Part shown: in pieces, positions 23,530 through 40,615 of the stretch | Numbering within the stretch: position 1 is the first letter of the stretch | Layout of the letters: each line of letters begins with the position of its first letter | Assembly (NCBI GenBank): GCA_023333565.1 | Contig: JAJKFH010000115.1 | Span: 4,340,001-4,404,000 of the forward strand | DNA length: 64,000 nucleotides | Reading direction: 5' to 3' | Origin: Puffinus mauretanicus | Lineage: Eukaryota > Chordata > Aves > Procellariiformes > Procellariidae | The notes under the pieces: generated by a model | The model's database searches: none | What the model saw: only the letters and a program-made list of their open reading frames with translations | What the model was told of the DNA's origin: nothing | Made by a program: the position numbers and the translations under genes

Positions 23530-23680
23530 ATGGCCCCTGGAAGCAAATTTAAGAGTGCTGAATTGATATTACCATGTGAATGGAAAGAATGCTGCTTTGT
23601 AGGGAAATGCATGGAGGAATTTTGTAATCATATTGTGGAACACTTGGAAGAGTACCTACAGCACCCCCTGGAAACGGCAG
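23530..23680 (+). CDS. HINFP-like: HINFP-like coding exon 1 (finger 1)
   Basis: Starts at ATG with G at -3 and +4. Finger 1 is C16-X4-C21-X12-H34-X3-H38. The donor CAG|GTCATT is weak, but the phase (one base of a Glu codon) fits exon 2 exactly. The same exon carries 5' UTR from 23527. Confidence 0.87.
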
Positions 23681-38600: not shown

Positions 38601-40615
38601 CTTTACGAACTTTGACACAGCATTACAAGAGAGCGCATGTGGTGAGCATATTAAGTAGCAGAATAAAATATATTGCTATAAGTGAGACTAATGTTTCAAA
38701 TTTATGTGCGTTTAGTTTCTTGTAAATTAATGAAATGTTTCATTTTTGCATCAAATCAAGTATTCATTTGCACACGTTTCTAGGACTCTTGCAAGTATTA
38801 TGCAAATATCTGACTCATCCTTACCTATAGATTTTGTGTGCTTACCTTAGGTGCATGCAGTTGCATACTGACAATCTTGAACTCTGGCCAACCCCCCACC
38901 TTTTTTTTTTTAAAAAAAAAAAAAAAGAAGAACATGCCAATCCTAATCTCAACAGCAAAATATTTCAGGGATTAAAATCCAATGTCACCTTTCTCCTCAT
39001 GTTGGTAGTCCATCCTTAGAACTAATATGTTAACTGAAAATAGAGAAACTACAAAGTGTGTAAAGCTTACATCACTTTCAATCGGGTGAGTCTGGCCACA
39101 ACATTAAAGTACAGTTTTGACTGCTACAGTTTATGCACGCTTGTTGCCAGTTTCTTCAAATTTCTGAGTTAGGATCACTGCTATGTTGTAAAATGAATAC
39201 ATTTTAGTGGAAGCTATGTGTCACACCACTATTGGAGATATCTGCAGTACTGATGGCCAATGCAGAGAATTTCCGTGTTCACTAGGGTTCCTTAATTAGA
39301 CAAGTTCTAAAAACCACAAGTTTTAAACATTTTAGGAAGTTAACTTCAAAAAGGTTTTCAGCTAGTTGGTGTGGTTTTCCCCTTTTCAACAAGGGATTCT
39401 TTTTTTGTCATATATATGTGCAAACCTTCAATGACTCTAACAGTCTTTCTTTCCAAGAGTAATGGCATTCTGAAATACAAATGCCACATCTGTCAGAAAT
39501 GTTTCTCCTGGAGTTATACATTGACCCTACATCTTCGAAAAGCTCATGAACTCCGCAGTCATTCTCGTTTCAGGTATGTTACCAGTTGATTCTTGTTCAC
39601 ATCATAAAGTGTTTTTTTTTTTTAAATGTTTTGTTTAAAAGATCCAGATATTTAATTAAATGCTATCTTAAGTTTGGTTCAGTTTTAAACATGCTGAGCG
39701 TGAAACAATTTACTGCTTAGGTTTCACTATCATGATGGAAAACCTAGTGTAAAGATGGTTAAACCAAGGAAAAAAAGGTCTTTTTGCTTTTATAGCTTTT
39801 ACCACTGTGAAAATCTTGTAACCTAGATTGTTGAAAGTAATTTTTTTGAGCCTGCAAGTTGTATCCACCAAACAGAGTACATAAATATATCAACAACTTC
39901 TGAAGTATAAACAAGCCATACTCTCCATTTTGGGACAAGAAAATACAGCAAATAAAATACAATTATGAATAGGTATCTCTTATTTTCTGTTACGTGATGT
40001 ATATTTGATAAAAACTACTTACTGGAACCCTCTTGCAAGTGTTCCTTCACATAGAATGTCTTTTGTTTGGGTGCCACCTAATAAATAGCAATCTAATTCG
40101 TCTTTTAATTGCTGACATTCTCAGTTTTGGCAATTTAATGAGATGTTACTCTTATTTTCTGCTGTAAATGCTATGTTTGTAACTTCTATTTTCAGTATTT
40201 TCAATTTTATTCCCTTAGATATAAAGAAGATGATGAGGGTCACATGAGTTTGAATTTAGCAGTATATAATGCTGTCATGGGTTTAGGTCAGGCTCCTAAT
40301 AACAAGACAGTAACAAACAAGTCTTCAAGTCAAAATAGTTTTGGAAGAGAAGGAGGGGACTCTGGCGAAAGAGACACTTCAACAGCAGAAGTACTTTTCA
40401 CGCAGCTTCAGCCATGGTCACGAGCTACTGGAGAAAATGTTGTGGTAGAAACAGAGACTTCTATGCCAGAGCCTGTGTATTCTGAACTTCAAACTGCTGT
40501 ACAGCCGTTCGAAAACAGTTGTACTTCAGCTAAAGTTGATGAAGCCACACCGATGAACGTGAAGGAAAAACTGGTAGAAATGGAATTGGACTTGGGAATT
40601 CAGATAGCTTTCTAG
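23530..40615 (+). CDS. HINFP-like: HINFP-like C2H2 zinc-finger protein, complete, nine coding exons
   Basis: Predicted 496-residue zinc-finger protein homologous to histone H4 transcription factor HINFP (about 517 residues in human). Coding exons: 23530-23680, 24790-25013, 28970-29081, 33463-33615, 34564-34641, 37341-37461, 38503-38641, 39458-39573 and 40219-40615; they sum to 1491 bases with no stop before TAG. There are ten fingers. Fingers 1-4 and 9 use C-X4-C (C16/C21, C55/C60, C119/C124, C159/C164, C302/C307); the others use C-X2-C. Finger 5 ends in Gln (Q209) instead of the last His, as I recall for HINFP. Near-identical HINFP blocks include VVACPTCGGMF and RLLRDHMR. The tail after residue 366 is divergent. 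By homology it would bind DNA in the nucleus, perhaps at CGGAC-type sites; its targets are unknown. Divergence and location argue for a paralogue rather than HINFP itself. The start has a good context (GCAATGG). Confidence 0.9.
24790..25013 (+). CDS. HINFP-like: HINFP-like coding exon 2 (finger 2, start of finger 3)
   Basis: Finger 2 is C55-X4-C60-X12-H73-X3-H77, followed by YHTKLK, a block shared with HINFP, a spacer, and C119/C124 of finger 3. Acceptor GTGTTTAG; donor GAT|GTAAGT. Confidence 0.92.
25014..28969 (+). other. HINFP-like intron 2
   Basis: Nearly 4 kb of AT-rich intron between finger 3's cysteines and histidines. No exon, RNA gene or clear repeat was seen; open frames here are short and unrecognisable. 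Confidence 0.7.
28970..29081 (+). CDS. HINFP-like: HINFP-like coding exon 3 (rest of finger 3, start of finger 4)
   Basis: Completes finger 3 with WFYQHVAIH (H137, H141), then VYCHWK begins finger 4 (C159). Acceptor TTTTTAG; donor AAAG|GTAGTT. It is too short and open-ended to stand out as an ORF, but matches HINFP in order and spacing. Confidence 0.9.
30311..30995 (+). mobile_element. CR1 LINE, 5'-truncated, 3' end intact
   Basis: Lies in HINFP-like intron 3. The 5' part still translates as the end of CR1 ORF2 (FLGVLIDSRLNMSW...RPHLEYCVQF). The 3' UTR follows with TTGGACTCGATGATCTTAGA, and the copy ends in two ATTCTATG units. Stops and indels show it is inactive. This end signature is the clearest sign of an avian genome here. 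Confidence 0.93.
31556..31790. repeat. Low-complexity degenerate repeat-like segment
   Basis: Sequence dominated by irregular recurrences of AGTCCA, AGTCAGAGGC, AGCCAGG and similar words, unlike its AT-rich surroundings. It may be a decayed minisatellite or interspersed repeat; I cannot name a family. Confidence 0.35.
33463..33615 (+). CDS. HINFP-like: HINFP-like coding exon 4 (rest of finger 4, finger 5)
   Basis: Completes finger 4 (C164, H177, H181). Finger 5 is C189-X2-C192-X12-H205-X3-Q209, with Gln in place of the fourth zinc ligand. Contains HTQERVVACPTCGGMF, the block most like HINFP. Acceptor GGTTTTAG; donor ATA|GTAAGT. Confidence 0.93.
34564..34641 (+). CDS. HINFP-like: HINFP-like coding exon 5 (finger 6)
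   Basis: 78 bases, phase 1 at both ends, one finger: C219-X2-C222-X12-H235-X3-H239 with ERLLRDHMRGH. Acceptor AAATTCAG; donor ATG|GTAAGT. As a symmetric single-finger exon, skipping it would keep the frame. Confidence 0.92.
36246..36489. repeat. Inverted-repeat (fold-back) element in HINFP-like intron 5
   Basis: A perfect 19-base inverted repeat, TATTCTGGAATCACTCCCT at 36246-36264 and its reverse complement at 36471-36489, bounds about 206 bases. Related TTATTCTGG/TTCCAGA words recur inside and just outside. It looks like a decayed non-autonomous DNA transposon (MITE); the family was not identified and no clear target duplication was found. Confidence 0.6.
37341..37461 (+). CDS. HINFP-like: HINFP-like coding exon 6 (finger 7, start of finger 8)
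   Basis: Finger 7 is C245-X2-C248-X12-H261-X4-H266, then DDRPFHC and C277 open finger 8. Acceptor TTTTCTAG; donor CGG|GTAAGA in phase 2. Confidence 0.92.
38333..38468 (-). mobile_element. MIR-like (CORE-SINE) remnant, inverted
   Basis: Reads on the + strand like the reverse complement of MIR: CCCTTTTCACAGGTGGAAAA, ACTGAGGTAGAGAAGTGATT, then GTCAGAGCC and ATTAACCACAAGACTA. Old and degraded. It ends about 35 bases before the exon 7 acceptor. Confidence 0.55.
38503..38641 (+). CDS. HINFP-like: HINFP-like coding exon 7 (rest of finger 8, finger 9)
   Basis: Completes finger 8 (H290, H294). Finger 9 is C302-X4-C307-X12-H320-X4-H325. Acceptor GTTTTCAG; donor GTG|GTGAGC. Starts with one base (Gly codon completed) and ends in phase 0. 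Confidence 0.92.
39458..39573 (+). CDS. HINFP-like: HINFP-like coding exon 8 (finger 10)
   Basis: Last finger: YKCHIC (C335, C338), H351-X4-H356. The acceptor is TTCCAAG|AGT; a start two bases later at the overlapping GAG would break the frame. Donor CAG|GTATGT, phase 2, inside an Arg codon of FRYKE. Confidence 0.92.
40219..40615 (+). CDS. HINFP-like: HINFP-like coding exon 9 (C-terminal tail)
   Basis: Begins RYKEDDEGHMSLNLAVYN, recognisably like the block after the last HINFP finger, then about 110 residues rich in Ser, Thr and Glu with no zinc ligands. It ends GIQIAF, a hydrophobic end loosely similar to HINFP's acidic IQMV-type end. Acceptor CCCTTAG. Confidence 0.9.

What the first reader, a model, noticed from the sequence alone, without database searches (positions are those of the whole stretch)
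23530..40615. Intact HINFP paralogue between PRDM15 and RIPK4
Seen: nine coding exons with matching phases give 496 residues and ten fingers in HINFP order. Known: human HINFP is on chromosome 11, and PRDM15-RIPK4 are neighbours on chromosome 21 with no such gene that I know of. Inference: an old DNA-level duplicate of HINFP kept in sauropsids or birds and lost, or never present, in mammals. A second H4-type regulator could have a germline, embryonic or tissue-specific histone role.
Basis: partly seen in the sequence, partly recalled or inferred. Interest (0 to 1): 0.82.

Follow-up and report, generated by a model that had tools for sequence, protein, structure and literature searches.

The report
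Ancient second HINFP gene, eutherian-lost
This bird genome carries an intact sister gene of HINFP, a known switch for histone genes; the pair split before sharks and bony fishes diverged, the sister gene is still found in fishes, turtles, many birds, marsupials and the platypus, and no placental-mammal copy was found.

Summary
Nine coding exons (23530-40615, +) splice to an intact 496-aa protein with ten HINFP-type fingers. The same genome also has an intact true HINFP on another contig (C593; 546 aa; the same eight intron phases), so this is a second gene, not a moved one.

Trees put the window gene in a fully supported clade "L" with sharks, ray-finned fishes, platypus, koala, turtles, crocodile and birds, beside a HINFP clade "H". 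Sauropsid-only and bony-vertebrate-only duplications are both rejected. An ABCG4 exon lies near HINFP, and its only other match in the genome (ABCG1-like) lies 0.27 Mb from this gene, which fits a whole-genome-duplication pair.

Relatives are already auto-named "histone H4 transcription factor-like", including in koala, wallaby and platypus. The L searches listed no named eutherian, amphibian, passerine or galliform L record. Eight library searches showed no paper on it.

Zinc ligands are kept. Finger 10's base-contact residues are switched consistently between the paralogues. Most likely it is a working DNA-binding factor that shares HINFP's core site but differs at one flank (inferred).

The parts
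20801..22100 (+). CpG island, probable promoter and untranslated first exon of the gene (donor-like GT at 21879)
   Evidence: GC up to 0.71, CpG o/e up to 1.09; role inferred
23530..23680 (+). coding exon 1: ATG, finger 1; AG just upstream at 23525-23526
24790..25013 (+). coding exon 2: finger 2 and start of finger 3
28970..29081 (+). coding exon 3: finger 3 and start of finger 4
33463..33615 (+). coding exon 4: fingers 4 and 5 (finger 5 with Q as fourth ligand position)
34564..34641 (+). coding exon 5: finger 6
37341..37461 (+). coding exon 6: finger 7 and start of finger 8
38503..38641 (+). coding exon 7: rest of finger 8, finger 9
39458..39573 (+). coding exon 8: finger 10 with the paralogue-specific W-x-Y-T helix
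40219..40615 (+). coding exon 9: conserved post-finger region (RFRYKEDDEGHMSLNL), tail with PVYSEL and LGIQI motifs, stop
1164..12978 (+). upstream neighbour: C2H2 exons and C-terminal exon of PRDM15 (label recalled)
47988..56499 (+). downstream neighbour: span of the two stop-to-stop ORFs that hold RIPK4 kinase exons; the gene runs on

Best explanation
The gene is an intact, old paralogue (probably a 2R ohnologue) of HINFP. Shown: gene structure, intact frame, separate HINFP in the same genome, deep gnathostome clade, conserved zinc ligands, and a consistent switch of the finger-10 contact residues (finger 9 also differs, but it varies within both clades). Inferred: it makes a nuclear zinc-finger protein driven from its own CpG-island promoter. 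Fingers 3-8, whose consensus contact residues mostly match HINFP (18 of 24), would read a HINFP-like core site. Fingers 9-10 would read a different flank or have turned to another use, so the two proteins would share some targets (H4 or other G1/S promoters) and differ on others. Confidence in the ancient-paralogue part is about 0.97; in a working DNA-binding factor with overlapping but shifted target choice, about 0.55.
For: Nine exons and open frame. Own-genome HINFP with identical intron phases, exons 3-7 of identical length (112, 153, 78, 121, 139) and 47.7% identity over 394 aa. In a 51-row tree, 25 L and 26 H rows form two 100/100 clades, each with cartilaginous fishes branching first. 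AU tests reject a sauropsid-only duplication (lnL 316 lower, p 9e-5) and a bony-vertebrate-only one (lnL 149 lower, p 5e-68). An ABCG4 exon near HINFP has one other match in the genome at E <= 0.01, on the window contig 0.27 Mb away; a C2CD2-family match is also on that contig. Of the 39 Cys/His ligand columns, 37 are kept in all L rows with letters there and one row is off at each of the other two. Finger-10 W.Y motif in 103 of 109 L and 0 of 121 H records; RG motif in 120 of 121 H and 0 of 109 L. Five unnamed L records (P0053, P0076, P0078, P0079, P0087; source lgn) lie on contigs of only 1.75-2.7 kb, which look like spliced transcripts (inference).
Against: No expression or binding data for any L protein was found. 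L changes faster than HINFP: in six comparisons, finger-region identity to this bird is 54-89% for L against 72-93% for H, and tail identity 25-73% against 52-85%. Fingers 2 and 9 differ widely (consensus identity 43% and 46%). At finger 3 the window itself has Val at +2 (6 of 25 L rows) and Gln at +6 (11 of 25), where H is Glu and Arg in 26 of 26, so even the shared core may be read differently. Finger 9 differences at -1 and +3 are only Thr/Ser. Apparent absence from several lineages argues against an essential role. C2CD2L lies on another contig (C2352) than HINFP, so the paired neighbourhood is only partly shown. No outgroup was available; the clades of the AU tests were named after the tree had been seen.
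Confidence: 0.65

Rival explanations
1. Sauropsid- or bird-specific DNA duplicate of HINFP.
For: Present in turtles, crocodile and many birds; introns shared with HINFP.
Against: Cartilaginous and ray-finned fishes, platypus and marsupials carry the same clade; AU test rejects it.
Confidence: 0.01
2. Relocated HINFP: the only HINFP of this bird, moved to the PRDM15-RIPK4 interval.
For: None beyond the family resemblance.
Against: Intact HINFP at C593:92777-88425 in the same genome, grouping with bird HINFP.
Confidence: 0.01
3. A decaying paralogue: intact here, but drifting after HINFP took over the shared work, with repeated losses (eutherians, amphibians, passerines, galliforms).
For: Faster change than HINFP; no eutherian, amphibian, passerine or galliform name among the L records while all have H records; long squamate branch, Hemicordylus 0.81; several bird L records are short, partial or flagged LOW QUALITY (Leptosomus, Cariama, Tyto, Larus, Aquila, Buteo, Accipiter).
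Against: Zinc ligands nearly invariant over 25 L rows and the finger-10 W and Y kept in 25 of 25 rows from sharks to birds; records of 495-507 aa in seven other bird genera (Phalacrocorax, Pezoporus, Anser, Melopsittacus, Strix, Struthio, Anas).
Confidence: 0.25
4. Not a histone factor: a paralogue whose fingers 9-10 and tail have turned to another target set, e.g. transposable elements or germline genes.
For: All four contact positions of finger 10 and of finger 9 differ in consensus from HINFP; faster, lineage-variable evolution.
Against: Fingers 3, 5, 6 and 8 keep three or four of four consensus contact residues; no target data.
Confidence: 0.25

Closest known systems
HINFP (HiNF-P, MIZF), histone H4 transcription factor
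   Same: Ten finger units in the same order, finger 5 with Gln at the last ligand, eight introns at the same places and phases, post-finger RFRYKE region and LGIQI end
   Different: 47.7% identical over 394 aa; finger-10 contact residues switched, finger 9 different in consensus; VYYV[LM] block in 0 of 101 usable L tails and 49 of 106 H tails, PVYxxL in 89 of 101 L and, by the same loose pattern, 43 of 106 H; other contig in this genome; faster evolution
'histone H4 transcription factor-like' / zgc:112083 of NCBI and UniProt
   Same: Same gene by tree; up to 89% identity over the whole length
   Different: Nothing but the species; the database name is automatic and does not state that it is a separate ancient paralogue
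CTCF zinc-finger array (best sequence match in the PDB)
   Same: General C2H2 array similarity, E 4.9e-24
   Different: No family relationship beyond the C2H2 fold; no HINFP structure was among the 60 shown of 108 matches

Membership tests
HINFP family (H + L) | Ten C2H2-type fingers in fixed order, finger 5 with Gln as last ligand | tested here: met
   Q at finger 5 in 25 of 25 L and 26 of 26 H rows
HINFP family (H + L) | Nine coding exons with the family's intron places and phases | tested here: met
   all eight phases identical to the own-genome HINFP
HINFP family (H + L) | Conserved region directly after the last finger (RFRYKE..DG..) | tested here: met
   RFRYKEDDEGHMSLNL in the window (conserved in part); its role as auxiliary DNA-binding motif is recalled, paper not held
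HINFP proper (H clade, one-to-one orthologue) | Groups with HINFP of the same class of animals | tested here: not met
   window is in L, 100/100; own C593 gene is the HINFP
HINFP proper (H clade, one-to-one orthologue) | Finger-10 helix R-x-N-N | tested here: not met
   window has W-x-Y-T; the W.Y motif is in 103 of 109 L and 0 of 121 H records
L clade (histone H4 transcription factor-like, zgc:112083) | Groups with that clade and has the W-x-Y-T finger-10 helix | tested here: met
2R ohnologue pair with HINFP | Duplication older than crown gnathostomes | tested here: met
2R ohnologue pair with HINFP | Duplication within vertebrates and paired neighbourhoods | tested here: inconclusive
   one neighbour pair shown (ABCG4 near HINFP, ABCG1-like near L); C2CD2L not on the HINFP contig; partner searches for RIPK4 and PRDM15 unanswered; no lamprey or invertebrate row in the trees
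Histone H4 gene activator | Binds the H4 site and recruits NPAT | not testable with these tools
   needs binding and expression assays

The most novel reading that the evidence does not exclude
Jawed vertebrates began with two HINFP-type histone/S-phase regulators. The second, with its own finger-10 code fixed since before sharks split off, still runs a separate set of targets in fishes, reptiles, many birds, monotremes and marsupials, and eutherians lost it (with further independent losses in amphibians, passerines and galliforms), so that HINFP work in mouse and human shows only half of the ancestral system.
Probability: 0.3. Interest if true: 0.68.

Novelty: new member of a known kind. Interest (0 to 1): 0.43.

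Why it matters
In the passages I read of one review (PMC5706932), HINFP is the key factor of mammalian histone H4 promoters and is required there for recruiting NPAT and RNA polymerase II. A second HINFP-type protein, kept from sharks to marsupials and apparently lost in eutherians, means that conclusions from mouse and human need not hold for fishes or birds. Species with and without the gene give natural knock-outs for testing what it does. The fixed finger-10 switch makes a concrete, cheap binding test possible.

Tried and rejected
Relocated HINFP: rejected, own HINFP found. Retrocopy: rejected, eight shared introns. Sauropsid-only and bony-vertebrate-only duplication: rejected by AU tests. 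Pseudogene in this bird: no stop or frameshift in 1491 nt. Structured RNA in the window: no match to any of 4227 Rfam families at gathering score. Exact HINFP-like core strings (CGTCCGC / GCGGACG, recalled motif) in the window: none, so no hint of autoregulation. The PDB search for PRDM15 exons gave only generic fingers. Eutherian relic DNA between human PRDM15 and RIPK4: not testable here. dN/dS: not computed, since only proteins of other species were available. No structure was predicted.

Pattern counts (finger 10; tail) were too narrow and missed many fish L records; replace them. The looser PVYxxL pattern also matches 43 of 106 H tails, so it does not separate the clades.

Literature: 8 searches were answered; one search was rejected for a sign and rerun. 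HINFPL: 0 papers; 'histone H4 transcription factor-like' and three other names: 2 papers (mussel, ants); HiNF-P with MIZF: 1; 'lost in eutherian' with HINFP: 0; paralogon terms: 0; HINFP with zebrafish: 26, 25 listed; HiNF-P with NPAT and others: 36, 15 listed; HINFP/paralog/birds: 4,294, 20 listed. Apart from passages of PMC5706932 I saw listings only, so a passing mention inside an unread paper is possible.
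Full report
What is there. The spliced model at 23530-40615 has nine coding exons, eight GT-AG introns, matching phases and one open frame of 496 residues. Ten finger units are present in HINFP order. The downstream gene on the same strand is RIPK4. The upstream one is PRDM15 by recall.

Is it the only HINFP here? No. A search of the window's own 1.21-Gb assembly with the product finds, as the best place outside the window, contig C593 at 61% identity, with a second stretch there at 37%. Splicing that locus gives an intact 546-residue HINFP with nine coding exons. 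All eight intron phases equal those of the window gene and exons 3 to 7 have identical lengths; the two products are 47.7% identical over 394 residues. This is a DNA-level duplicate.

How old is it? The first protein search gave 298 proteins at E <= 0.001, of which 120 were listed. A profile of eight L proteins gave 465, 120 listed, and a profile of six HINFP proteins gave 412 among the 7990 candidates scored, 120 listed. The 230 distinct records obtained were scored against an L and an H profile: 109 are L and 121 are H, with a smallest margin of 111 bits (49 of the 230 were used to build the profiles). L records are named from 18 bird genera, turtles, crocodylians, one lizard (Hemicordylus), platypus, koala, tammar wallaby, sturgeon, gar, teleosts and cartilaginous fishes. 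Seven of the 18 bird genera have a record of 495-507 aa without a quality flag; the others are shorter, isoforms, partial or flagged. A tree of 37 rows separates H (100/100) from the rest, with its midpoint root falling inside L, between the shark L rows with H and the other L rows. In a tree of 51 rows both clades have 100/100 support, and in both the cartilaginous fishes branch first. Both roots are midpoints; there is no outgroup. AU tests reject holding all sauropsid rows together (22 of 51 rows, lnL 316 lower, p 9e-5) and holding all bony-vertebrate rows together (47 of 51 rows, lnL 149 lower, p 5e-68); both groups were named after the tree had been seen.

Neighbourhood. About 9 kb downstream of HINFP on C593 lies an exon that I recognise as ABCG4 (recalled; a pig HINFP record carries the name ABCG4). 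As a query against the whole assembly it has two matches at E <= 0.01: itself, and one at C57:4091081-4091296, which is 0.27 Mb from the window gene on the same 4.67-Mb contig and reads like ABCG1 (name recalled). The C2CD2 family profile matches C57 between 4276000 and 4284993 and contig C2352; the latter is not C593, so that pair does not show adjacency to HINFP. From recall, the human pairs ABCG4/ABCG1, C2CD2L/C2CD2, PRDM10/PRDM15 and ANKK1/RIPK4 lie on 11q23-24 and 21q22, a known duplicated block; searches for the RIPK4 and PRDM15 partners did not complete. Contig lengths in the protein searches agree with separate chromosomes. Bird L records lie on contigs of 201-226 Mb in eight listed species (Phalacrocorax, Struthio, Oxyura, Anas platyrhynchos, Anas acuta, Aix, Larus, Leptosomus), but of 144 Mb in Bubo, 60.5 in Tyto and 45-48 in Pezoporus, Aquila and Buteo. 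Bird HINFP records lie on 6.2-10.4 Mb contigs in eleven listed species, the rest on scaffolds under 2 Mb. Within one species: Callorhinchus 81.2 against 8.5 Mb, Carettochelys 383 against 17.8 Mb, Mauremys reevesii 362 against 52 Mb.

Who lacks it? I saw no eutherian, passerine, galliform, amphibian, coelacanth or lungfish name among the L records. In one search the list passes from L to H before the cap (the last 15 of 120 rows are H), so a full-length L protein is unlikely to have been cut off; short ones may be. The groups are in the database: 10 eutherian, 12 passerine, 2 galliform and 9 amphibian named records were picked out and all are H, but most came from the HINFP search, so that count by itself is expected. 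So eutherian loss is likely, and the bird and amphibian absences are leads.

How does it differ from HINFP? Over 25 L and 26 H rows, the 39 Cys/His ligand columns are kept in L with two single-row exceptions, and fully in H; the fortieth, in finger 5, is Gln in every row. Taking the positions that usually touch bases (-1, +2, +3, +6; general C2H2 knowledge), consensus residues agree in four of four at fingers 3 and 5, three of four at fingers 6 and 8, two of four at fingers 1, 4 and 7, one of four at finger 2, and none at fingers 9 and 10. Finger 10 is W, Y, T, L in L (25, 25, 23 and 23 of 25) and R, N, N, V in H (26, 25, 25 and 18 of 26). Finger 9 is less clear-cut: two of its four differences are Thr against Ser, and it varies within both clades. 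In all 230 records the W.Y motif is in 103 of 109 L and 0 of 121 H; the RG motif in 0 of 109 L and 120 of 121 H; six L and one H record have neither. The window departs from HINFP also at finger 3: Val at +2 (shared by 6 of 25 L rows) and Gln at +6 (11 of 25). The tail keeps the post-finger region and an LGIQI end; a PVYxxL pattern is in 89 of 101 usable L tails and 43 of 106 H tails, the VYYV[LM] block in 0 of 101 and 49 of 106.

Rates. In six comparisons, finger-region identity (start to RFRY) between this bird and the relative is lower in L than in H every time: Melopsittacus 89.1 and 92.8, Carettochelys 74.3 and 93.0, crocodylians 74.6 and 89.2, marsupials 67.2 and 87.2, gar 53.7 and 71.5, Callorhinchus 55.2 and 71.8 percent (crocodylians and marsupials use different genera for L and H). 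L is thus under looser or different constraint, which is evidence for the decay rival.

Mechanism. HINFP binds a site in H4 promoters and is required for recruiting NPAT and RNA polymerase II there (PMC5706932, passages read). The inference here is that L, keeping most of fingers 3-8, reads a related core and, with changed fingers 9-10, a different flank, so that the two share some targets. Nothing here shows binding, expression in birds, or a histone role.

Novelty. The protein is already in public databases under an automatic name, so its existence is not new. Eight searches of the held open-access library listed no paper on it (listings only, and most subscription journals are not held).

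Noticed in passing
window 30315-30593 (+), intron 3: Open frame resembling the end of a CR1-type LINE reverse transcriptase (recognised from memory); a similar stretch lies at L041 6224-6655 (-).
   Followed up: no
window 47401-49400: CpG island over the first coding exon of RIPK4.
   Followed up: no
L039 45-578 (-), about 3 kb downstream of HINFP on C593: Open frame with a sushi-domain-like stretch (CGRPEADFNSVVYGNDWWVGSVVRYSCRPGF; domain recognised from memory) between HINFP and the ABCG4 exon; gene not identified.
   Followed up: no
(protein records): Several lineages (passerines, galliforms, amphibians, coelacanth, lungfish, four squamate genera) appear by name only with HINFP and not with the L gene, suggesting repeated losses.
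   Followed up: partly
L proteins, tail (window 40219-40615): A PVYxxL tyrosine motif recurs in L from sharks to birds near the place where many H proteins have VYYV[LM]; the pattern also matches 43 of 106 H tails.
   Followed up: partly
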